A stretch of 61,537 nucleotides of DNA. Origin: Flavobacteriales bacterium. GTDB lineage: Bacteria > Bacteroidota > Bacteroidia > Flavobacteriales_E > Vicingaceae. Numbering within the stretch: the stretch's first letter is position 1; each line of letters opens with the position of its first letter. The notes under the pieces were generated by a model. The model was given only the letters and a program-made list of their open reading frames with translations. It searched no databases and was not told the origin of the DNA. The translations under genes were made by a program, and so were the position numbers. Location: the NCBI GenBank assembly GCA_002401955.1, contig NVUQ01000015.1, forward strand, positions 1-61,537. Reading direction: 5' to 3'. Below are positions 3,838 through 61,537 of the stretch, in pieces.

Positions 3838-4257
3838 TCATTCTAACTTCTGACTTCTTAACTTCTTAATTCTAACTCCTGTCTCCTGCCTCCTGTCTTC
3901 TGTTTCCTGTTTCTTGTCTCCTGTCTCCTGCCTCCTTACTCCTGTCTCCTGCCTCCTTACTCCTGTCTCCTTAACTCCTGCCTCCTTAACTCCTTAACTC
4001 CTGTTTCCTGTCTCCTGTCTCCTGTTTCCTGTCTTCTTAACTTCTGTCTCCTGCCTCCTGTCTCCTGCCTCCTTACTCCTGTCTCCTTAACTCCTGCCTC
4101 CTTAACTCCTTAACTCCTGTCTCCTGTCTCCTGTTTCCTGTCTCCTGTCTCCTTACTCCTGTCTCCTGTTTCTTGTCTCCTGTCTCCTGTTTCCTGTCTC
4201 CTTACTCCTTAACTTCTGTCTTCTTAACTTCTTAACTTCTGACCCCTTACTTCTTCA
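3838..4257. repeat. Degenerate pyrimidine-rich tandem array, about 420 bp
   Basis: The gap between the inositol-lipid cluster and ychF is filled by a degenerate array of short units such as TCTCCTGT, TCCTGCC, TTACTCC and TTAACTCC. The plus strand is almost all C and T with scattered G and A. Longer blocks recur, for example a stretch at about 3940-4010 that resembles 4060-4130. No reading frame, transposase or spacer structure is present. Comparable degenerate arrays in other word families lie at 11706-11790 and 55503-55652. Confidence 0.9.
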
Positions 4258-4268
4258 TTCTAAATCGT

Positions 4269-11790: not shown

Positions 11791-11829
11791 TTATTGGTAG
11801 GTTTAGTTCAAAATATTTTTTTTCCTTAC

Positions 11830-11954
11830 AATCATCAATCATCAATCATCAATCATCAATCATCAATCATCAATCATCAATCATCAATCATCAATCATCA
11901 ATCATCAATCATCAATCATCAATCATCAATCACTTGTGCTGAGCGTAGCCGAAG
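11830..11954. repeat. Heptanucleotide AATCATC array with embedded GCTGAGCGTAGCCGAAG element
   Basis: From 11830 to about 11932 the 7-bp unit AATCATC repeats with almost no variation, about 14-15 copies. It is then interrupted by a segment containing GTGCTGAGCGTAGCCGAAG, after which ATCAATCATCAG resumes and merges with the 3' end of the RNA methyltransferase gene. A near-identical GTGCTGAGCGTAGTCGAA occurs at about 54959-54976, so the embedded piece is a dispersed repeat. Such perfect arrays change copy number by slippage. Confidence 0.92.
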
Positions 11955-47043: not shown

Positions 47044-48048
47044 TTGAAAACTCCAGAAAACATAAAAGACCAATTTGGTAGGATACACAATTATCTTAGA
47101 ATTTCGTTAACAGAAAGGTGTAATCTAAGATGTTTTTATTGTATGCCAGAAGAAGGTATACAGCTTTCAGAAAAAGCAAATGTGTTAACCCATGAAGAAG
47201 TCATCTTTTTAGCCAAAGAATTTGTTGCACTTGGTGTAAATAAAATTCGATTAACAGGAGGAGAGCCACTCATAAAAAAAAATATTGAAAAAATAATTAG
47301 AGAATTAACTGCTTTACCAATATCCTTAGGTATAACAACTAACGGAATATTGTTGGATAAATACATTGATTTATTTAAAGAATGTGGAGTTAAAGACATC
47401 AACATTAGTTTAGATACGCTGGATAAAGAAAAGTTTGAACTCATGACTCGAAGAGATTATTACGATAGAGTGATGAGTAACATATATCAGTGTATTTTGG
47501 CAGGATTCAATGTGAAGATAAATGCCGTACTGATAAAGGGAACTAATGATAATGAGATTATTGATTTCATAGAATTTACGAAAGATAAAAATGTTTCATT
47601 TCGATTTATAGAATTTATGCCTTTTGATGGAAATAAATGGGATACCTCTAAAGTGGTGAGTCTAGAAGATGTTTTGAAAAAGGTAAATGAGAACTATGCT
47701 CAACATCAAATCATCAAATTAGAAGATAAGAAAAACGATACTACAAAGAACTATAGAATAAAAGGATATCAAGGTTCATTTGGTGTTATTAGCACGGTTT
47801 CTAATCCTTTTTGTGATAGTTGCAATAGAATACGCCTTACAGCAAACGGGAGAATTAAAAACTGTCTGTTTTCTGCTACGGAAACCAACTTGTTAGAACC
47901 ATTAAGAAAAGGAGAAGATGTAGTTCCTCATATACTAGAAGCAGTTTACCCTAAAAAGAAATCGCGTGGAGGTATGATTTCAGATAAAGATTTCTTTGAC
48001 AAAGAAAAAAACACCAAGAATAGAGCAATGATAAGTATTGGGGGGTAA
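47044..48048 (+). CDS. moaA: GTP 3',8-cyclase MoaA
   Basis: The protein has 334 residues from a TTG start. This radical SAM enzyme makes the first committed intermediate of molybdenum cofactor from GTP. The N-terminal cluster is CNLRCFYC (Cys26, Cys30, Cys33), and the C-terminal cluster has Cys257, Cys260 and Cys274 in CDSCNRIRL and RIKNC. RLTGGEPL is the SAM-binding region. An ATG 14 bp upstream (47030) is one base out of frame and stops within the gene start. The last 55 codons are repeated at 49507-49671. Unlike the other moco genes it is separated from the cluster by an ATPase cassette and an S41 protease. Confidence 0.93.
   Translation: MKTPENIKDQFGRIHNYLRISLTERCNLRCFYCMPEEGIQLSEKANVLTHEEVIFLAKEFVALGVNKIRLTGGEPLIKKNIEKIIRELTALPISLGITTNGILLDKYIDLFKECGVKDINISLDTLDKEKFELMTRRDYYDRVMSNIYQCILAGFNVKINAVLIKGTNDNEIIDFIEFTKDKNVSFRFIEFMPFDGNKWDTSKVVSLEDVLKKVNENYAQHQIIKLEDKKNDTTKNYRIKGYQGSFGVISTVSNPFCDSCNRIRLTANGRIKNCLFSATETNLLEPLRKGEDVVPHILEAVYPKKKSRGGMISDKDFFDKEKNTKNRAMISIGG
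47882..48046 (+). repeat. moaA 3' end, copy A of a 165-bp direct repeat
   Basis: This stretch matches 49507-49671 at an offset of 1,625 bp with six base differences (47964, 47973, 47991, 47994, 48000, 48043), and a seventh in the stop codon (48048). The first five are silent in the moaA frame; the sixth changes Gly to Arg. Confidence 0.95.
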
Positions 48049-48055
48049 CTAAATT

Positions 48056-48158
48056 GTCATTCCGATTGGATCCTGATTTTTTTATCGGGAGGAACAGAGG
48101 TATCTTTTGACTTTTGTACTGCAAATTAAAAAGATACCTCGACTGTGCTCGGTATTAC
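48056..48158. repeat. About 103-bp palindromic element, downstream copy
   Basis: It begins GTCATTCCGATTGGA, the same 15 bp as the copy at 46851, and ends TCGGTATTAC. Inside, GAGGTATCTTTT (48097-48108) and AAAAGATACCTC (48129-48140) form a perfect 12-bp stem. It lies just after the moaA stop, within the putative inserted segment. Confidence 0.8.
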
Positions 48159-48216
48159 AAAAACTTACAAATTGAAGTGATGAATCTATAGGAAATTCAT
48201 AATAAAGTATTATTTT

Positions 48217-48263
48217 TTTTACGTTGAAAATTTAAAACTAAATTTTAATATTTCAACGTAAAA
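48217..48263 (+). promoter_or_regulatory. Inverted repeat operator candidate before the ATPase
   Basis: TTTTACGTTGAAA (48217-48229) and TTTCAACGTAAAA (48251-48263) are perfect 13-bp inverted repeats with 21 bp between. The right arm occupies the spacer between a -33 TTTA (48244-48247) and the -7 element (48268-48275), where a bound protein would block polymerase. Confidence 0.6.
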
Positions 48264-48267
48264 TGTG

Positions 48268-48275
48268 TATTTTTG
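48268..48275 (+). promoter_or_regulatory. Promoter -7 element TATTTTTG with almost no leader
   Basis: TATTTTTG matches TAnnTTTG, with TTTA 20 bp upstream. The GTG start at 48280 lies 4 nt after it, so the transcript would be leaderless or nearly so unless a later start is used. Confidence 0.6.
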
Positions 48276-48279
48276 AATT

Positions 48280-49437
48280 GTGATAAAAAGAAGTGTAATA
48301 AATGATGTTTTAGAGCTAATCAGCTTTTTTCCAGTAACTGGCTTGCTTGGGGCAAGACAAGTTGGTAAAACAACATTTGCAAAAGAATTAATATCATTAA
48401 TAGATAAAGAGTGTATTTATATAGATTTAGAATATCCAGACGATTTAGCGAAACTAACTGAACCAAGCATTTTTTTTAAGCAAAATGAAGGCAAGTGTAT
48501 CATTATAGATGAAGTGCAACGAATGCCTTCATTGTTTCCAATTTTAAGAGCTGTTGTAGATCAAAAAAGAGAAGCAGGAAGATTTATTTTGTTAGGGTCA
48601 GCATCTCCCGACTTAATTAGAGATTCATCAGAATCGTTAGCAGGAAGAATTGCTTACAGAGAAATAGCAACACTCAATTTATTAGAAATAGAGTCTGTAA
48701 ATACTCAAGAATATCACTGGATAACAGGAGGATTTCCTGAAGTATTTCTATCTAAAAAAGATAAGTTTAAAGCCTTGTGGTATCAAAATTTTATTCAAAC
48801 TTATATTGAGAAAGATTTGCCGCAATTAGGCTTAAGAGTTGATAGTTTATTGCTGCGAAATTTTTTAATGATGTTAGCACACAATAATGGAAACATTTGG
48901 AATGCTTCTACCATTGCAAAATCGTTAGGAGTAACAAGTCCAACAGTACAGAAATACTTAAGTTTTTTAGAAAATTCTTTTATGATAACGGTGTTGCCAT
49001 CGTTTCATATTAATGTGAAAAAGCGAATAGTAAAAGCGCCAAAAATATATTACAGAGATACAGGTATTTTACATTATTTGCATAAAACTCCTTCTTTAGA
49101 AGATTTACAAGGTCATCCAGTAATTGGAAGCTCTTGGGAAGCTTATGTAATTGAGCAAATAAAACAATTAGTACAGAATAAGTATGGTATGTACTTTTAT
49201 AGAACACACAGAGGTGCTGAGTGTGATTTGCTATTGGTAGATGGAACAAAAGTGGTTTACAGTATAGAAATAAAATATTCTTCTGCACCTAAAGTAACTA
49301 AAGGACATCTTATTTCTATTGAGGATGTAAACGCTGAACAAAACTTTATGATTACACCCAATTCTGATGAGTATTTAATAAAAGAACATATTAGAGTTTG
49401 TTCTTTAAAAGTGTTTTTGAAAAACTATTTAAAATAA
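48280..49437 (+). CDS. AAA-type ATPase with DUF4143 C-terminal domain
   Basis: The protein has 385 residues. The P-loop is GARQVGKTTF (about residues 23-32), Walker B is CIIIDEVQRMP, and LGSASPDLIRDSSESLAGR is the sensor segment typical of these ATPases. The C-terminal DUF4143 part includes YYRDTGILHYL, WEAYVIEQI and YFYRTHRGAECDLLL, the last with the E-x-D-L pattern of a PD-(D/E)xK-like fold. This family is widely scattered by transfer and its role is unknown. It lies between two copies of the moaA 3' end and has its own promoter and operator-like inverted repeat. The start is a GTG close to the promoter. Confidence 0.92.
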   Translation: MIKRSVINDVLELISFFPVTGLLGARQVGKTTFAKELISLIDKECIYIDLEYPDDLAKLTEPSIFFKQNEGKCIIIDEVQRMPSLFPILRAVVDQKREAGRFILLGSASPDLIRDSSESLAGRIAYREIATLNLLEIESVNTQEYHWITGGFPEVFLSKKDKFKALWYQNFIQTYIEKDLPQLGLRVDSLLLRNFLMMLAHNNGNIWNASTIAKSLGVTSPTVQKYLSFLENSFMITVLPSFHINVKKRIVKAPKIYYRDTGILHYLHKTPSLEDLQGHPVIGSSWEAYVIEQIKQLVQNKYGMYFYRTHRGAECDLLLVDGTKVVYSIEIKYSSAPKVTKGHLISIEDVNAEQNFMITPNSDEYLIKEHIRVCSLKVFLKNYLK

Positions 49438-49673
49438 AAGCATTAAAATACATATTACTAATCATTGTCGCCCTGAGTTTGATGATGGATAAACAATGCT
49501 TTTCTCAAACCAACTTGTTAGAACCATTAAGAAAAGGAGAAGATGTAGTTCCTCATATACTAGAAGCAGTTTACCCTAAAAAGAAATCTCGTGGAGGAAT
49601 GATTTCAGATAAAGACTTTTTTGATAAAGAAAAAAACACCAAGAATAGAGCAATGATAAGTATTGGGAGGTAG
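49434..49673 (+). pseudogene. In-frame remnant: signal-peptide-like start joined to a moaA tail
   Basis: The reading frame encodes KALKYILLIIVALS followed by QCFSQ, which resembles a Bacteroidota signal peptide, and then runs at 49507 directly into the MoaA C-terminus from TNLLEPLRKGED to ISIGR, ending TAG. There is no ATG before the signal-like part (ATA at the expected place). The moaA part is copy B of the duplication. It looks like a recombination junction and is probably not translated. The short leader overlaps the ATPase stop codon. Confidence 0.8.
49507..49671 (+). repeat. moaA 3' end, copy B of the 165-bp direct repeat
   Basis: Copy B is identical to 47882-48046 except at six positions, five of them silent third-codon changes. 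That pattern points to past selection on the protein rather than decay after a simple local duplication. Confidence 0.95.
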
Positions 49674-49697
49674 CACAAACACGTCATTCAGAACGAT

Positions 49698-49729
49698 ATT
49701 TTGTCCAAACCGTAGTTTGGTAACAAAAT
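49698..49729. repeat. Hairpin ATTTTGTCCAAAC...GTTTGGTAACAAAAT
   Basis: The arms pair around CGTA with a 2-nt bulge. A relative with the same ATTTTGTCCAAA core is at 53763-53797. It follows CGTCATTCAGAACG, as in dispersed repeats of this kind. Confidence 0.75.
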
Positions 49730-49771
49730 GAAGTGTGGAATCTGTTTGATTAATAACGAAAAACAAAAATT

Positions 49772-49858
49772 ATAAAAAACCTAAAATACATATTACTCTT
49801 TTCATTTTCATTTTTTTTAAAATGTGTTACAGCAATTCTCTTAAGGATAAGAAGATGA
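49772..49858 (+). pseudogene. Signal-peptide-like remnant (29 codons)
   Basis: The frame ATA AAA AAC CTA AAA TAC ATA gives KNLKYILLFSFSFF and stops at TGA 49856-49858. It shares TAAAATACATATTACT (49782-49797) with the other remnant (49444-49459) and likewise has ATA where ATG would be expected. It may be the decayed 5' end of a secreted-protein gene. The rest of the gap to 50001 holds only the promoter and hairpin listed below. Confidence 0.35.
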
Positions 49859-49939
49859 TGATTGTGTAATAGGAAATAAGGGTGTAAGATTGAAAAACAC
49901 AATAAATCATAAAATCAAAAGAGGCTAATATTCTTTATC

Positions 49940-50001: not shown

Positions 50002-51756
50002 ATGAAAAGAATATCCATTATTACAATTATTTTACTGTGTTGTGTAACTGCTTTAAAAGCTAAATCTAATATTGATTCGCTCCAAATTGCTGGTTTGTGT
50101 AAGGTTTGGGGATTAGCAAAGCATTATCACCCCAGTGTAACAAAAAAGAAAGTTGATTGGGATAAGGCCTTAATTGATAGATATCCAGAATTTAAAGAGG
50201 AGAATGATTTTGAAGCATATAATCAGAAAATTGGAGAAATACTGAATGCTCTTGGAAATAATAAGGAAACTAAAATAGTAACCGAAGAGTTATTTCAAAA
50301 TATCATTGATAATGATTTGAGTGAATTGGAAAGTTTTAAATTTCTATCTGACACGAATAAATATGTTAATCGTATCTCTTTTTCTTGGATTAACGACTCT
50401 ATTTTTTCAAAAGAAATTAAATATAGGCTGTGTAAAATTTTAACTAATTACAAACCTTATAAGAGTAAGTTTCTTAAAGGGGGTATGGTGTTAAAACATC
50501 CAGAAAACAAATTTGAGGAGTTAGATTCTATTACTGAGCCTTATAGAATGCTAGGATTGTTTAGGTATTGGAATACGATTAACTATTATTTTCCATACAA
50601 ACATTTATCAGATAATAATTGGGATTCAGTATTAGTTAATGCAGTTTCAAAATTTTCAGAAGCAGATAGTTATTTGAAATATATTCGTGAATTAATGCAG
50701 TTATCATCTAAGATAAACGACTCTCACGGTTATTATAATTACACCACACATAAGTATTTTAAAAAGAAAACGGAGGTTAATGATTCTCTAAAAAAGAAGG
50801 AGGGATACATTCCTTATAATTTTAAATTGTTTGATAGTACTGTGGTCATTAGTAAAGTTTTATTAGATTCTTCAGCCTTATGCATAGGGGATACGGTAAT
50901 AAAGATTAATAAAACAGAGTTGAAAAAATATTGGAGAATTTATGGTGACTACAATAGTCACTCAACAGAAAACCGTAAAGTTAGTTTATGCGAATCGGGG
51001 TTGTCTAATTTTTATAATTCAGAATTTAGTTTTAAAATTTTCAAAAATAATGACACTACAATTATTACTGAAAGTAGAGTTGTAGATCGGGAAACTAAAG
51101 TAGCATCTAAATACAGAAAACCACCATTTTCATATTCTATTAACGAGAATGTTGGGTTTGTAGATTTAACTCAAATAAAATTCGGTAAACTTGAAAAAGC
51201 TCTAAAAGAATTTAAAAATAAAGAAACTGTTATTTTTGATATGAGAGGATATCCTGAGAGTATGGCTCCGTTGGCTTTACCTCATTTGTTAAGCAGAAAT
51301 AAGCAAGATGTAGCAAGTTTTTATTCTCCGAATAAAAAATACCCAGGTGTTTTTGTCAAACAACCTACTAAAAGTCAACATTATCGTTTTGCGATAGCAA
51401 AACCTTTTCTTTTTCTACGAAAACAATTTAAAGGTAAAGTAGTTGTGTTGATTAATGCGGAGGCTATATCTTATTCAGAAACGGTATGCATGATATTTAA
51501 AGCATATTGTGATGATGTTACTTTTGTTGGAACACCTACTACTGGGGCGAATGGAAATATTTCTACCATTTATGTTCCTGGAGGAATGGCTTTTAATTTT
51601 ACATCTTTAGATTGGCATTTTCCTAATGGAGATCAATTACAAAGAATTGGAATTATTCCCGATATTTACGTTCAAGAAACCATTGAAGGAATTAAGTTGG
51701 GTAAAGATGAAATTTTAGAAGCGGCAATAGAATACGCTAAGAAAAGTAAGCAATGA
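50002..51756 (+). CDS. Exported S41-family peptidase
   Basis: The protein has 584 residues. A signal peptide ends near residue 20 (TALKA). The C-terminal half is the S41 catalytic core: VVVLINAEAISYSETVCMIF carries the likely nucleophile Ser, FVGTPTTGANGNIST follows, and GIIPDIYVQ is the usual closing segment. It lacks the GKGTVQ lysine of CtpA proteins and so resembles the tricorn-core branch. It is probably periplasmic or attached to the outer membrane. Its stop overlaps the moeA start (ATGA), so it is co-translated with moeA although no link to molybdenum cofactor is known. Confidence 0.9.
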   Translation: MKRISIITIILLCCVTALKAKSNIDSLQIAGLCKVWGLAKHYHPSVTKKKVDWDKALIDRYPEFKEENDFEAYNQKIGEILNALGNNKETKIVTEELFQNIIDNDLSELESFKFLSDTNKYVNRISFSWINDSIFSKEIKYRLCKILTNYKPYKSKFLKGGMVLKHPENKFEELDSITEPYRMLGLFRYWNTINYYFPYKHLSDNNWDSVLVNAVSKFSEADSYLKYIRELMQLSSKINDSHGYYNYTTHKYFKKKTEVNDSLKKKEGYIPYNFKLFDSTVVISKVLLDSSALCIGDTVIKINKTELKKYWRIYGDYNSHSTENRKVSLCESGLSNFYNSEFSFKIFKNNDTTIITESRVVDRETKVASKYRKPPFSYSINENVGFVDLTQIKFGKLEKALKEFKNKETVIFDMRGYPESMAPLALPHLLSRNKQDVASFYSPNKKYPGVFVKQPTKSQHYRFAIAKPFLFLRKQFKGKVVVLINAEAISYSETVCMIFKAYCDDVTFVGTPTTGANGNISTIYVPGGMAFNFTSLDWHFPNGDQLQRIGIIPDIYVQETIEGIKLGKDEILEAAIEYAKKSKQ

Positions 51757-52925
51757 TATCAGTAGAACAAGCAAAAGAACTCGTAAATAAAAATGTATTT
51801 CCATTAGCAATAATAGAGGTAGGCGTTATTGATGCGTTAGGTTTTTATTTGGCTAAAAATATAATAGCGCCAATTTCAGTTCCTTCATTTAATCAATCTG
51901 CAATGGATGGTTATGCTTTTTCTTTCGATAGCATAAAAGAACAATTACCAATAGTGGAGGAGGTTGCCGCTGGAGATACTCGACACATTGAGATTAAGAA
52001 TACAGAGGCAGTAAGAATATTTACAGGATCTAATGTTCCGAGTTCTTGTGATACAGTTGTAATGCAAGAATTAACTGAAGTAGTTGATGGTAAATTGATT
52101 GTAAAAGATGCTGGTTTAAAACTTGGAGGGAATATCCGATTTAAAGGCTCTCAAATAGAAGGGGGAAGCATTGCTTTAGAAAAAGGAACCAAGATTAACG
52201 CTGCTACAGTAGGTTTCTTATCTACCTTAGGAATTACTAAAGTCAACGTTTATCAGTCTCCAAGAGTGACTATAATTGCTACTGGTGATGAGTTGGTAAA
52301 GCCGGGAAATAAATTAGAAGTAGGTCAAATATATGAGTCCAATACCTTTATGCTCAAAGCAGCGTTAAATAAGCTAAATATTGATCCCGATATCATTTTA
52401 GTAGAAGATAATAAAGAGGCAACCCAGAAAGCTGTTTCAATTGGATTGAATAAAAGTGATTTACTATTGTTATCTGGTGGAATTTCTGTTGGAGATTATG
52501 ATTTTGTTAAAGAAGCATTAGAAAAAAATGGGGTAGAAGAAGTCTTTTATAAAGTAAAACAAAAACCAGGAAAGCCTTTGTATTTCGGAAATACTAAGAG
52601 TTGTTATGTGTTTGCATTGCCAGGAAATCCAGCAGCAGCATTAACATGCTTTTATCAATATGTGAGTGTTGCTATTAATAAGATGAAAGGCTCTCAGAAT
52701 GCAGGATTATCTAGATTAAATTTACCTATAAAAAGAGAGTTAACAAAAAAAGAAGGTAGAGCAGTTTTTTATAAAGCTTATACAGATTTAAAATCTGTCT
52801 CAATACTAGAAGGTCAAGGTTCAGACGTTTTAAAGTCTTTTTCTTTGGCTAATTGTTTTGTTTACGTAAAAGAAGAAATAACTTTAATAAAAGAAAATGA
52901 AGTAGTAGAAGTATATTTGATTTAA
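51753..52925 (+). CDS. moeA: Molybdopterin molybdenumtransferase MoeA
   Basis: The protein has 390 residues. The enzyme inserts molybdate into adenylated molybdopterin. Conserved segments are NQSAMDGYAF (about residues 47-56), FTGSNVPSSCDTVVMQE, VTIIATGDELVKPG, ISVGDYDFVKEAL and CYVFALPGNPAAALTCFYQY. Length and order are canonical. It starts inside the stop codon of the S41 gene and is followed after 1 bp by mobA. Confidence 0.96.
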   Translation: MISVEQAKELVNKNVFPLAIIEVGVIDALGFYLAKNIIAPISVPSFNQSAMDGYAFSFDSIKEQLPIVEEVAAGDTRHIEIKNTEAVRIFTGSNVPSSCDTVVMQELTEVVDGKLIVKDAGLKLGGNIRFKGSQIEGGSIALEKGTKINAATVGFLSTLGITKVNVYQSPRVTIIATGDELVKPGNKLEVGQIYESNTFMLKAALNKLNIDPDIILVEDNKEATQKAVSIGLNKSDLLLLSGGISVGDYDFVKEALEKNGVEEVFYKVKQKPGKPLYFGNTKSCYVFALPGNPAAALTCFYQYVSVAINKMKGSQNAGLSRLNLPIKRELTKKEGRAVFYKAYTDLKSVSILEGQGSDVLKSFSLANCFVYVKEEITLIKENEVVEVYLI

Positions 52926-59600: not shown

Positions 59601-61537
59601 AACACCACCGCATCAAGTACGTCATTCAATACTTTACCTACAGAACAAGCCGATGATTGGATGATTACTTCAGGGATCGGTCCTCTTCCAGCTAATCAGA
59701 TGTTAACTTGGGATGCCATAGCAGAGGCCGCACCAAACTTTCCTGATGGTTATGAAGTAAGGATTTCTACCACCCAACTTCCAGCCAATGTTGGAAATTA
59801 TGCTACGGTTTTATTTTCTACTGCTGCCGAGAACGGTTTTACAACACAACGTAGTGTTTCATTAGCATCATACGCTGGGCAAACAGTATACATCGCTTTT
59901 AGAAATAATTCAACCGATGAATTTATTTTATCCATCGATGATATATGGGTTGGTACTACTGGTCCTGGTTGCACCGCAACAATAACAAAAACCGATTTCG
60001 TTGAAATTATCAATTGTACCGTATTGCCTCCTGTTGCAGATTTAAATGCAACAGATTCAACAGGGTGTGCACCATTAACGATTACTTTTACAGATGCAAC
60101 TGTCTCTGGTGATCCTGCAACTTCATGGTTGTGGAACTTTGGAGATGGAAATTTCTCTACATCACAAAACCCACCAACACATGTTTATACGGTACCTAAT
60201 ACTTATTTTGTAAGTTTTCAGGCGTGTAATTCAGGTGGTTGTACAACTGATTATATAACAGTTTTAGTAGGTACTGGCGTAACAGCAATTGCTGGAGCTG
60301 CTCAGAATATATGTGGAACAACAGCAACATTAGCTGGTAATGATCCAGCACCTGATACTGGACTATGGTCAGTACTTGCTGGTACAGGTTCTGTAACTAC
60401 TCCAACAGCTTTTAATTCTGGAGTCACTGGACTTTCTCCAGGCTTAAATCAGTTTGTTTGGACAGTTACAGGAACAGGTTGTGTATCTATTGATACAGTT
60501 GATATAACGGTTGCAGCTACACCAACAACATCCAATGCTGGAGCTGCTCAGAATGTATGTGGAACAACAGCGACCTTAGCAGGTAATGTCGCTGCTTCAG
60601 GAACAGGAACATGGACTTTAATTAGTGGAGCAGGAACAATCACCACACCAGGTTCAGCTACATCAGGTATTACTGGATTGGGAGTAGGAGCGAATGTATT
60701 TGAGTGGAGCATAGCGAATCTACCATGTGCCGCTTCAATGAGTCAGGTAACCATAACAGGAGTAGCTACACCAACAACATCCAATGCTGGAACTGCTCAA
60801 AATGTATGTGGAACAACAGCGACCTTAGCAGGTAATGTTCCTGCCATAGGAACAGGAACATGGACTTTAATTAGTGGAGCAGGAACGATAACCACTCCAG
60901 GTTCAGCCACTTCTGGATTAACTGGATTGGGAGTAGGAGCCAATGTATTTGAGTGGAGTATAGCCAATGCACCATGTGCTGCTTCAACGAGTCAGGTAAC
61001 CATAACAGGAGTAGCTACACCAACAACATCTAATGCAGGAGCTGCTCAAAATGTATGTGGAACAACAGCGACCTTAGCAGGTAATGTTCCTGCTTCAGGA
61101 ACAGGAACATGGACTTTAATTAGTGGAACAGGAACAATTACTACACCAGGTTCAGCCACATCAGGTATTACTGGATTGGGAGTAGGAGCCAATGTGTTTG
61201 AGTGGAGCATAGCGAATCTGCCATGTGCTGCCTCAACGAGTCAGGTAACTATAACAGGAGTCACACCTGCCAACGCTGGAACTTCGAATGTTTTTGGAAT
61301 TTGTGCAACTGCACTAGCTACAGATTTATTTCCTCTTTTAGGAGGAGCAGATCTGGGAGGAGCATGGACAGGAGGTCCACCTCCATTGACAGGAGGTGAT
61401 CAAGGAACATTTGATCCATCCACCAATATAGCGGGAGTATATACCTATACGGTAACAGGAGTAACACCATGTGCCAATGCCGTATCTACGGTAACAGTAA
61501 CGATAACAGCAGGAGATGATCCAACTTTTGTTTACCC
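56691..61537 (+). CDS. Giant secreted M43 metalloprotease/adhesin (partial, open at window end)
   Basis: The frame is open for at least 1,615 codons to the window edge; start ATG 56691. A signal peptide (1-20, ending ASFCQ) precedes a propeptide with a run of ten Asn (57-kb region). The M43 protease domain has HEMGHTFGLFH (His316, Glu317, His320, His326) and Met-turn HMSYSF near residue 418. Then come a PKD domain (TGWTWDFNSAG), beta-sandwich regions, a second PKD (DYTWDFGDGAVQ), a cleaved-adhesin-like domain (about 920-1110, FEDFESGWPAGY), a third PKD (SWLWNFGDGNFS) and a run of Ig-like repeats, three of which are near-identical (60516-61259). A T9SS tail is expected beyond the window. Confidence 0.92.
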   Translation, partial: MKSFLILALSLLISMASFCQKSNNNSIVKIPKTQVVGDYKGQPNVVKNGVKTPTSAQMSGSYEIKPRSQSKKVSNASLNQGKPIVNNLSKQNIVKKNNNNNNNNNNTSAVSNKHLANPKNNPRNLPLNSKGNLISVDGYEVTFDVPNSSKTSNVCSTPMPTMIDGNKNAACGFIVPRDNPASRDVSTFNTVKYFQLRWLVFTDGGPATNIDQTRINALMNELNADYAAYNMVFCADPATFLESSTWYTHNSNTDEFPMKDANNVTPTQVINIYVVGSMTAGGYARMPYDPNGGTDAHGGIVLNKGNCSVGTHTLAHEMGHTFGLFHTFNGVAEQGGPGSCSNCYERVRNTNGSSNASGVPTPLGGPYTSEGDQEGDWCSDTHPHDQDSYQCPGPAGATGGCDLFGRVPANFPVDNHMSYSFCTSTFTDQQSRRMHGMVDDYLGSWVNYGGGICGSLPPVAEFVGTPTNWQSPSTVNFTDLSQPTAIITGWTWDFNSAGQAGTVTPATFVGQTPPPVVYDIGGAGGCLDYEVTLTITGNGGDTEVKTSYINVCPASGDCDTLDLYWTTPASSPTWYNYAGGYLTGVQDPGNQVTPATDIKGMYERYITPNPGVSTVGAIRVGLGNLNDADGDMRFQVAVYDDDGTGAPGALLGGRGGLDPNNIGVPGWGFYNEIWIPLLTPLTPTTGSFHVAVEILPQDATDSMLVISSVAPQGQGNGLNHIFTTGWGMENLLGVYGVDIDLDIVPMMGEWAPLPLITGFTENVVCDTTFVTLFDTILYTDYAGTALTGLSFTFADGTVVTGPPDPGTINRTYTQAGPDTVTIVAINDCGRADTTVWYIPYNFLSTPDAEFTKVQGDPICMGAPGVDFNANTSGYQDYTWDFGDGAVQSSGDTASVNHVYNIPGLYYTSLTVTSTGYQPIDILHFEDFESGWPAGYLRFNNDVFTPNVAVNPPFTGSNATAWLDMDVYGDGNTTASSTSFNTLPTEQADDWMITSGIGPLPANQMLTWDAIAEAAPNFPDGYEVRISTTQLPANVGNYATVLFSTAAENGFTTQRSVSLASYAGQTVYIAFRNNSTDEFILSIDDIWVGTTGPGCTATITKTDFVEIINCTVLPPVADLNATDSTGCAPLTITFTDATVSGDPATSWLWNFGDGNFSTSQNPPTHVYTVPNTYFVSFQACNSGGCTTDYITVLVGTGVTAIAGAAQNICGTTATLAGNDPAPDTGLWSVLAGTGSVTTPTAFNSGVTGLSPGLNQFVWTVTGTGCVSIDTVDITVAATPTTSNAGAAQNVCGTTATLAGNVAASGTGTWTLISGAGTITTPGSATSGITGLGVGANVFEWSIANLPCAASMSQVTITGVATPTTSNAGTAQNVCGTTATLAGNVPAIGTGTWTLISGAGTITTPGSATSGLTGLGVGANVFEWSIANAPCAASTSQVTITGVATPTTSNAGAAQNVCGTTATLAGNVPASGTGTWTLISGTGTITTPGSATSGITGLGVGANVFEWSIANLPCAASTSQVTITGVTPANAGTSNVFGICATALATDLFPLLGGADLGGAWTGGPPPLTGGDQGTFDPSTNIAGVYTYTVTGVTPCANAVSTVTVTITAGDDPTFVY
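56979..57008 (+). repeat. Poly-asparagine codon run
   Basis: Ten Asn codons in a row (2 AAC, then 8 AAT) lie in the propeptide region of the giant M43 protein. The AAT run is a perfect trinucleotide microsatellite; copy changes would not shift the frame. Confidence 0.95.
60516..61259 (+). repeat. Three near-identical tandem domain repeats of about 249 bp (83 aa)
   Basis: Units begin at 60516, 60765 and 61014, each starting GCTACACCAACAACATC and encoding an Ig-like domain with AQNVCGTTATLAGNV, GTGTWTLISG and GLGVGANVFEWSIAN. A more diverged unit precedes them (about 60287-60515). Near identity at the DNA level suggests recent duplication or gene conversion. Confidence 0.95.

What the first reader, a model, noticed from the sequence alone, without database searches (positions are those of the whole stretch)
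47882..49673. DUF4143 ATPase cassette bounded by a 165-bp duplication of the moaA 3' end
The last 165 bp of moaA (47882-48046) recur at 49507-49671, exactly 1,625 bp away, with only six differences inside the repeat. Five are silent third-position changes and just one, in the penultimate codons, alters a residue. A local duplication followed by decay should show random changes; mostly silent changes mean both copies were ends of working moaA genes when they diverged. The simplest reading is that a foreign segment of about 1.6 kb, carrying a moaA 3' end and the ATPase, joined here and rebuilt moaA while leaving the resident end downstream. DUF4143 ATPases are widely transferred, but I know of no described mechanism with this footprint.
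Basis: partly seen in the sequence, partly recalled or inferred. Interest (0 to 1): 0.78.

Follow-up and report, generated by a model that had tools for sequence, protein, structure and literature searches.

The report
Orphan gene end beside imported ATPase
A bacterium appears to have picked up an accessory gene together with the tail of a neighbouring gene, leaving a spare tail behind as a scrap, and similar scraps turn up beside other added genes in related bacteria.

Summary
Confirmed: the last 165 bp of moaA recur 1,625 bp away with six differences, five silent. Between them sits a DUF4143 ATPase (PADLOC PDC-S01, candidate phage defence) and, just before copy B, the 5' scrap of a TPR/SpoIIE gene like those following moaA in relatives. 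The footprint recurs: flanking direct repeats at 31 of 98 DUF4143 loci (7 are duplicated 3' gene ends) and 8 of 29 YhcG loci, against 0 of 81 ordinary genes. A scan of 1.26 Mb found 8 gene-end cases, 6 in 0.86 Mb of this genome. Over 18 gene-end pairs 113 of 175 differences are at third positions; duplicate-then-decay is rejected for the two sets simulated, though this locus alone gives p = 0.065. So the silent-change logic holds in general. But copies A and B are sisters (99/98), so any donor was a near strain; the footprint is not ATPase-specific; and single crossover of a recircularised fragment is a described mechanism (PMC3240628). Specific to the ATPase: a private promoter palindrome (68 of 97, against 7 of 207 and 1 of 29).

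The parts
47044..48048 (+). moaA, intact (334 aa, TTG start as listed)
   Evidence: Radical_SAM, Mob_synth_C
47882..48048 (+). copy A: 3' end of the working moaA, stop TAA
48054..48162 (.). dispersed intergenic repeat (GTCATTCCGATTGGA type), many partial copies elsewhere in the genome
48217..48263 (.). 47-bp palindrome (21-bp arms), 16 bp before the ATPase start; presumed operator over the promoter; single copy in the assembly at up to 3 mismatches
48280..49437 (+). DUF4143 ATPase (AAA_14 + HTH-like stretch + DUF4143), GTG start, 385 aa; PADLOC candidate PDC-S01
49434..49506 (+). 5' end of a TPR/SpoIIE-type gene (signal peptide ..ALKYILLIIVALSLMMDKQCFSQ), start codon ATA, cut off at the junction
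   Evidence: 79% DNA matches to starts of TPR genes in G010 and G011 and 73% in G007
49504..49509 (+). junction TPR scrap | moaA copy B, with a 3-nt shared AAA
   Evidence: A side, junction and TPR starts printed together
49507..49673 (+). copy B: orphan moaA 3' end, stop TAG
49683..49757 (.). second dispersed intergenic repeat (GTCATTCAGAACGA type)
49771..49797 (+). second TPR start-like scrap
   Evidence: (D3)
49853..49890 (+). scrap of a TPR/SpoIIE 3' end (DDxCVIG-type ending)
   Evidence: 20-25 bp matches near the 3' ends of TPR genes in L159 (twice), L011, L160 and L161; E-values 6e-5 to 1.4, so the consistent position matters more than the score
50002..51756 (+). S41-type peptidase, next intact gene
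51753..52925 (+). moeA, which follows moaA directly in 4 congeners

Best explanation
The locus is the scar of a small import from a closely related strain. The resident chromosome had moaA, then a spacer and a TPR/SpoIIE gene, as in relatives. A DNA piece from a near strain, reading moaA 3' end - spacer - ATPase with its promoter palindrome - start of a TPR gene, entered by homologous recombination through the moaA end on one side only. Its other end was closed by an end-joining step, seen as the junction of the TPR scrap to the inside of moaA. Either the piece recircularised and went in by one crossover within the 165 bp, or it recombined at moaA and joined illegitimately at the far end. The result keeps one complete moaA and leaves an orphan moaA end downstream. 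The cargo is a solo candidate phage-defence ATPase with its own operator-like palindrome. Shown: the structure, the recurrence of the footprint, its absence at ordinary genes, and the excess of silent differences in the pooled sets. Inferred: the direction of transfer, the near-strain donor, the recombination route and that the palindrome is an operator.
For: Repeat, junction and scraps. Same-genus loci examined around moaA (9 of 13 congeners): no ORF of 80 aa or more there resembles the ATPase; moeA follows moaA directly in G001, G004, G005 and G008; TPR genes follow in G007 (three), G011, G012 and G013. Recurrence: 20 of 58 and 11 of 40 DUF4143 loci, 8 of 29 YhcG loci, 0 of 81 controls; Fisher p 6e-10 and 1e-5. 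Scan of 1,258,437 bases: 8 cases, 6 of them in 858,437 bases of this genome, at the 3' ends of alaS, rnr, a 7TM-HD gene, a polysaccharide deacetylase gene and moaA and at the 5' end of a DUF2461 gene. Silent excess: 20/8/50, 8/3/23 and 14/9/40 at codon positions 1/2/3; duplicate-and-decay gives P(third positions as many) at most 0.0013 and 0.0043. In L334 the orphan carB end has frame-breaking gaps, yet 12 of 13 changed codons are silent. Described precedent: PMC3240628.
Against: A and B are sisters (99/98), as plain local duplication predicts; this locus alone gives p = 0.065. Some recurrent cases look like ordinary decay: alaS in C89 (3/2/0, no silent change) and L225 (6/1/3, 1 silent codon of 8); C139, C12, L206 and L336 are even or nearly so. 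Trees for the urocanase and E1-E2 ATPase ends do not settle the matter (AU p 0.47 and 0.14). No donor strain and no strain of the same species without the ATPase was found: only one genome per species is held. Competence genes were not looked for. The junction microhomology is only 3 nt.
Confidence: 0.6

Rival explanations
1. Local tandem duplication. A stretch from inside moaA to inside the TPR gene's signal peptide was duplicated in place by a 3-nt microhomology; the ATPase entered the first spacer before or after, and the TPR gene in the second unit was later lost.
For: A and B are sisters with 99/98 support. Both units hold moaA end - spacer with a GTCATTC repeat - TPR start-like sequence in the same order. 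This locus alone does not reject decay (p = 0.065).
Against: The two TPR starts share only about 26 bp at 85% and then differ, although the moaA ends are 96% identical. B carries few changes for a neutral copy: of six differences only one is clearly B's. The same process would have to explain the pooled silent excess.
Confidence: 0.25
2. Self-moving cassette. The ATPase/nuclease itself cuts and inserts the unit at gene ends, capturing or duplicating the end, with the palindrome as its site.
For: Flanking repeats at 31 of 98 loci. In 13 of these the repeat is the palindromic region itself, next to start and stop (two of the 13 only weakly palindromic). In 8 of 10 non-palindromic cases examined the downstream repeat begins within 70 bp of the ATPase stop.
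Against: YhcG genes without the palindrome (1 of 29) show the same gene-end repeats, and so do unrelated inserts. The window's junction lies inside a TPR scrap, not at the ATPase end. The window palindrome has no second copy in the assembly.
Confidence: 0.08
3. Assembly chimera of two strain variants in a metagenome bin (83% complete, 150 contigs).
For: The genome behaves as a bin of moderate completeness, and A and B differ as two strains might.
Against: The join needs only a 3-nt overlap, which an assembler would not use (inference), and the longest identical stretch of the two copies is 82 bp. The same structure occurs at 7 other places in the scan and in other genomes rated 97-99% complete, such as G384 and G015.
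Confidence: 0.07

Closest known systems
Single crossover of a recircularised, trimmed linear molecule; homology-facilitated illegitimate recombination (PMC3240628, passages and abstract; PMC5361080, passages)
   Same: Foreign gene anchored by homology to a gene end, with that gene end duplicated on the far side. In E. coli 56 of 60 clones had such a duplication, 109-950 bp in the 14 sequenced. Small microhomology at the join.
   Different: There it was measured on designed plasmids within hours, and true HFIR usually deletes resident DNA. Here it is inferred from old scars in environmental Bacteroidota, with copies that had diverged before they met. Entry route not tested.
Elements that integrate in the 3' end of a gene and carry a spare end, such as e14 in icd (recalled; one search gave only a paper listing)
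   Same: The gene stays whole, the old end is left behind as an orphan, and the two ends differ mainly silently (recalled).
   Different: No integrase was found between the repeats here, and the target gene differs at almost every locus.
PDC-S01 phage-defence candidate (PADLOC; PMC12988326 and PMC13356809, passages)
   Same: The window ATPase matches PDC-S01 profiles, best E 6e-80. The paper describes PDC-S01 as an ATPase fused to a PD-(D/E)XK domain; it calls experimental validation pending for most such candidates.
   Different: The promoter palindrome reported here is not mentioned in the passages seen; the whole papers were not read.
Rhs / T6SS displaced 3' ends (PMC5361080, passages)
   Same: Orphan 3' gene parts left behind by one-sided insertion.
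   Different: There the insert replaces the variable end of a toxin gene; here the host genes are housekeeping genes that are kept whole.

Membership tests
DUF4143 / AAA_14 ATPase (PADLOC PDC-S01) | AAA_14 and DUF4143 domains over curated cut-off | tested here: met
   PF13635 144.6 bits (cut-off 28.1), PF13173 93.1 bits (cut-off 27)
DUF4143 / AAA_14 ATPase (PADLOC PDC-S01) | PDC-S01 profile match | tested here: met
   seven PDC-S01 models match, best E 6e-80
DUF4143 / AAA_14 ATPase (PADLOC PDC-S01) | Conserved Walker A/B and PD-(D/E)XK-like residues | tested here: met
   G.RQ.GKTT, DE, SWE, G.E.D and E.K largely conserved in an alignment of 71 proteins; assignment of the last three to PD-(D/E)XK is recalled and supported by the passage
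DUF4143 / AAA_14 ATPase (PADLOC PDC-S01) | Protects against phage | not testable with these tools
   needs a plaque assay
One-sided / single-crossover import scar | Gene end duplicated in direct orientation around the insert | tested here: met
One-sided / single-crossover import scar | Copies diverged while both were coding (silent excess) | tested here: inconclusive
   window alone p = 0.065; met for the pooled sets
One-sided / single-crossover import scar | One copy traceable to another lineage | tested here: not met
   A and B are sisters; a strain-level donor cannot be seen with one genome per species
One-sided / single-crossover import scar | Competence or other DNA uptake in the host | not tested
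   no search made
Integrase-borne gene-3'-end element (e14/icd type) | Integrase gene in the element | tested here: not met
   the only ORF of 100 aa or more wholly between the copies is the ATPase
Self-moving palindrome-bounded cassette | Palindrome at both ends | tested here: not met
   window has the upstream palindrome only; 13 of 98 loci have the region on both sides

The most novel reading that the evidence does not exclude
PDC-S01 / DUF4143 ATPases of Bacteroidia are self-contained defence cassettes defined by a private palindrome that evolves with the protein. The palindrome is at once the operator and the recognition or cutting site of the protein, and in some loci it bounds the gene on both sides as a recombination site. 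Apart from this, orphan gene ends with silent divergence are a general fossil of solo-gene import in these bacteria, several per megabase, from which the donor's allele can be read.
Probability: 0.15. Interest if true: 0.75.

Novelty: new variant of a known kind. Interest (0 to 1): 0.52.

Why it matters
If the general reading is right, orphan gene ends are a readable record of how single accessory genes enter Bacteroidota chromosomes. Each scar keeps one end from the incoming DNA and one from the host, so time and relatedness of donor can be estimated without an integrase or transposase. It would also warn annotators that short moaA-, alaS- or rnr-like ORFs beside accessory genes are import scars. 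Separately, a palindrome tied to PDC-S01, which one paper calls the fourth most common defence across prokaryotes (PMC12988326, passage) with validation pending for most such candidates, gives a direct experimental handle on what this protein binds.

Tried and rejected
Rejected as the main account: a DUF4143-specific insertion mechanism, because the YhcG control family (chosen as another solo, widely spread gene) gave 8 of 29 and unrelated inserts gave more. Rejected: 'both copies must have been functional' as a proof from this locus alone (p = 0.065).

Led nowhere: plasmid search (no match); viral contigs (no relative confirmed); solved structures (none); NCBIfam gave no name for the ATPase. 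Papers: searches for DUF4143 (one paper, listing only), Pfam numbers (irrelevant hits), palindrome and mobile terms (none), single-gene cassettes and partial duplication (nothing that described this footprint in Bacteroidota in the listings). Only passages were seen of PMC3240628, PMC5361080, PMC12988326 and PMC13356809.

Limits. The 98 DUF4143 loci are 29 of 30 loci (L158 gave no match in tblastn and was dropped), 29, and 40 more; 12 of the 81 non-own matches listed there were not fetched. Some flanks are cut by contig ends. One search included the last 12 coding bases, one search did not. Of the 31 repeats, 7 are 3' gene ends, 13 the palindromic region, and 11 other (5' ends, TPR starts, dispersed repeats or unclassified). 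The ten loci whose distances were listed were picked by hand. YhcG upstream flanks were mostly shorter (about 600-1,500 bp, one of 71 bp), and 1 of 30 loci was dropped for want of an ORF. TPR pairs may be paralogues rather than copies. Gene names: urocanase, RadA, NhaD, AlaS, RNase R, DUF2461, polysaccharide deacetylase, 7TM-HD and the carbamoyl-phosphate synthase large chain rest; 'fixI' and 'ABC' are my labels (one search shows an E1-E2 ATPase for the first; the second was not scanned). That the C-terminal Gly-Gly of MoaA is needed is recalled.
Full report
Observation. The repeat is real: 47882-48047 against 49507-49672, spacing 1,625, 96% identity, with six differences in 165 bp and different stop codons. 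Five changed codons are silent; the sixth changes the last residue from Gly to Arg. Nothing else like it is in the window.

What is in between. The ATPase (48280-49437) has AAA_14 and DUF4143 domains over cut-off and matches PADLOC's PDC-S01 profiles. In passages of PMC12988326 PDC-S01 is an ATPase fused to a PD-(D/E)XK domain, the fourth most common defence across prokaryotes, with validation pending for most such candidates. Its likely catalytic residues are largely conserved among 71 relatives. Sixteen bases before its start lies a 47-bp palindrome. After its stop come 70 bp that align with the signal-peptide starts of TPR/SpoIIE genes (79% to G010 and G011, 73% to G007), with ATA in place of ATG, ending exactly where moaA copy B begins; the two sides share AAA. 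After copy B lie a second TPR start-like scrap and a TPR 3'-end scrap.

Relatives. In 9 of 13 congeners whose moaA neighbourhood I read, no ORF of 80 aa or more near moaA resembles the ATPase. In G001, G004, G005 and G008 moeA follows moaA directly; in G007, G011, G012 and G013 one or more TPR genes follow; G006 has other genes. So the interval is variable, and moaA - spacer - TPR gene is a natural ancestor. In G013, the nearest relative, a dispersed-repeat spacer and a TPR gene follow moaA, as after copy B; but the spacer match is partly a dispersed repeat, so this is not proof of descent.

Sisters. A and B form a clade with 99/98 support: 95.8% identical, against 87.4% and 88.0% to G013's gene. 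At third positions A and B differ at 6 of 55 (stop included), A and B from G013's gene at 13 and 11. Polarised on seven relatives, codon 37 (TTC) is A's alone and codon 30 (GGT) is shared with one relative only; codon 54 (Arg) is B's alone; the rest are ambiguous. B's stop TAG is also G013's. A therefore carries most of the clear changes, which is odd if B has been free of selection since a local duplication, but the numbers are small: in simulation such a model gives five or more third-position changes of six with p = 0.065.

The footprint recurs. I tested other DUF4143 loci for same-strand direct repeats of 30 bp or more with one copy on each side of the ATPase within 1.5 kb: 20 of 58, then 11 of 40 in a fresh set. 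Ordinary genes of similar length from 20-kb stretches of 20 of these genomes gave 0 of 81. Of the 31, seven are duplicated 3' gene ends: moaA (window), NhaD (L252), urocanase (L138), a TPR/SpoIIE gene (L145), an E1-E2 ATPase (L147), an ABC-type gene (L197) and an unnamed gene (L206). Thirteen are the palindromic promoter region, present again at the stop codon (L242 and L260 only weakly palindromic). Eleven are other kinds.

But it is not the ATPase. As a control for mobile single genes I took YhcG (PF06250): 8 of 29 loci have flanking repeats, including a carB-like 3' end starting 6 bp after the YhcG stop (L334), another 3' end (L336) and two 5' ends (L338, L345). An unbiased scan of 1,258,437 bases for a gene end with an orphan copy 0.5-6 kb away gave eight cases. 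Six are in 858,437 bases of this genome: moaA, alaS, RNase R, a 7TM-HD gene, a polysaccharide deacetylase gene and the 5' end of a DUF2461 gene (names). Inserts include a WG-repeat protein, a lipoprotein-like plus TPR-like pair, a 162-aa protein and an unnamed 575-aa protein; at the deacetylase gene no ORF of 100 aa lies between.

Silent excess. Differences between the two copies by codon position 1/2/3: seven DUF4143 loci 20/8/50, four YhcG loci 8/3/23, seven further scan cases 14/9/40; in all 42/20/113. I simulated identical copies, one under selection (omega 0.05) and one free, run to the observed number of differences, with three transition biases. For the DUF4143 set the observed third-position count was reached in at most 0.13% of runs and the low second-position count in none of 1,500; without the E1-E2 ATPase and L206 loci 0.4% and 0.13%. 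For the YhcG set at most 0.43% and 0.7%. The third set was not simulated. Exceptions exist: alaS (3/2/0, no silent codon) and L225 (1 silent of 8 codons) look like decay; C139, C12 and L206 are even and L336 has 3 silent and 4 replacements. So most but not all scars hold two ends that diverged as working genes before they met.

Where did the second end come from? For the urocanase and E1-E2 ATPase ends the two copies are no closer to each other than to congeners (urocanase U-D 87.7%, U-G004 89.0%; E1-E2 U-D 81.7%, U-G016 85.9%), but the trees do not exclude sisterhood (AU p 0.47 and 0.14). For moaA they are sisters. So donors range from near strains to members of the same genus; none has been identified.

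Mechanism. PMC3240628 (passages) introduced linear DNA with homology at one end into E. coli; 56 of 60 clones had a duplication of the gene end, 109-950 bp in the 14 sequenced, which the authors explain by single crossover of a recircularised, trimmed molecule. That is this footprint. HFIR is the close alternative. On either route the junction TPR scrap | moaA is the end-joining point and the moaA end the anchor. What I cannot show is the route of entry.

The palindrome. Within 100 bp of the start a palindrome of score 10 or more occurs in 34 of 57 and 34 of 40 DUF4143 loci, in 7 of 207 control genes and in 1 of 29 YhcG loci. Half-sites resemble ATCCYTGNAAATYTAAAA, and the right arm often holds a TAnnTTTG-like box (the Bacteroidota -7 element, recalled). 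Palindromes of more similar proteins are more similar (59 loci, Mantel r 0.25, p 0.0002); shared ancestry of the flanks could add to this. The window's palindrome is unique in the assembly at up to 3 mismatches. I read it as the ATPase's own operator; binding is untested.

Verdict. The new parts are the recurrence of silently diverged orphan gene ends around solo genes, and the private palindrome of the PDC-S01 ATPases.

Noticed in passing
L159 (G007:C96:15000-25000): Three TPR/SpoIIE genes in a row lie between moaA and moeA; G011, G012 and G013 have one there. The interval is a variable spot in the genus.
   Followed up: partly
window 48054-48162 and 49683-49757: Two families of dispersed intergenic repeats beginning GTCATTC, with many partial copies in this genome and its congeners.
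   Followed up: no
L198, about 2674-2887: Three spaced copies of the ATPase's palindrome follow the gene like a small array.
   Followed up: no
L218, 61 bp after the ATPase stop: A palindrome of a different DUF4143 subtype (like those of L132-L134) follows this ATPase, perhaps the trace of a lost neighbour cassette.
   Followed up: no
G004:C327:4740-4883: A decayed urocanase tail (67% identity, two stops) on a contig other than that of the main urocanase gene.
   Followed up: no
G000:C89:121095-122738, C110:36015-37397, C139:38021-39337, C8:11274-12852, C12:3548-5540: Five more orphan gene ends around inserts in this genome, at alaS, a polysaccharide deacetylase gene, the RNase R gene, a 7TM-HD gene and a DUF2461 gene.
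   Followed up: yes
L157 (G000:C103): A second, distant DUF4143 ATPase of this genome (29% identity) is flanked by a 140-bp repeat of 97% identity that is not a gene end.
   Followed up: partly
window 3859-4268, 11815-11947, 60266-61261: Tandem repeats: 14-bp based, a CAATCAT run, and units of about 249 bp.
   Followed up: no
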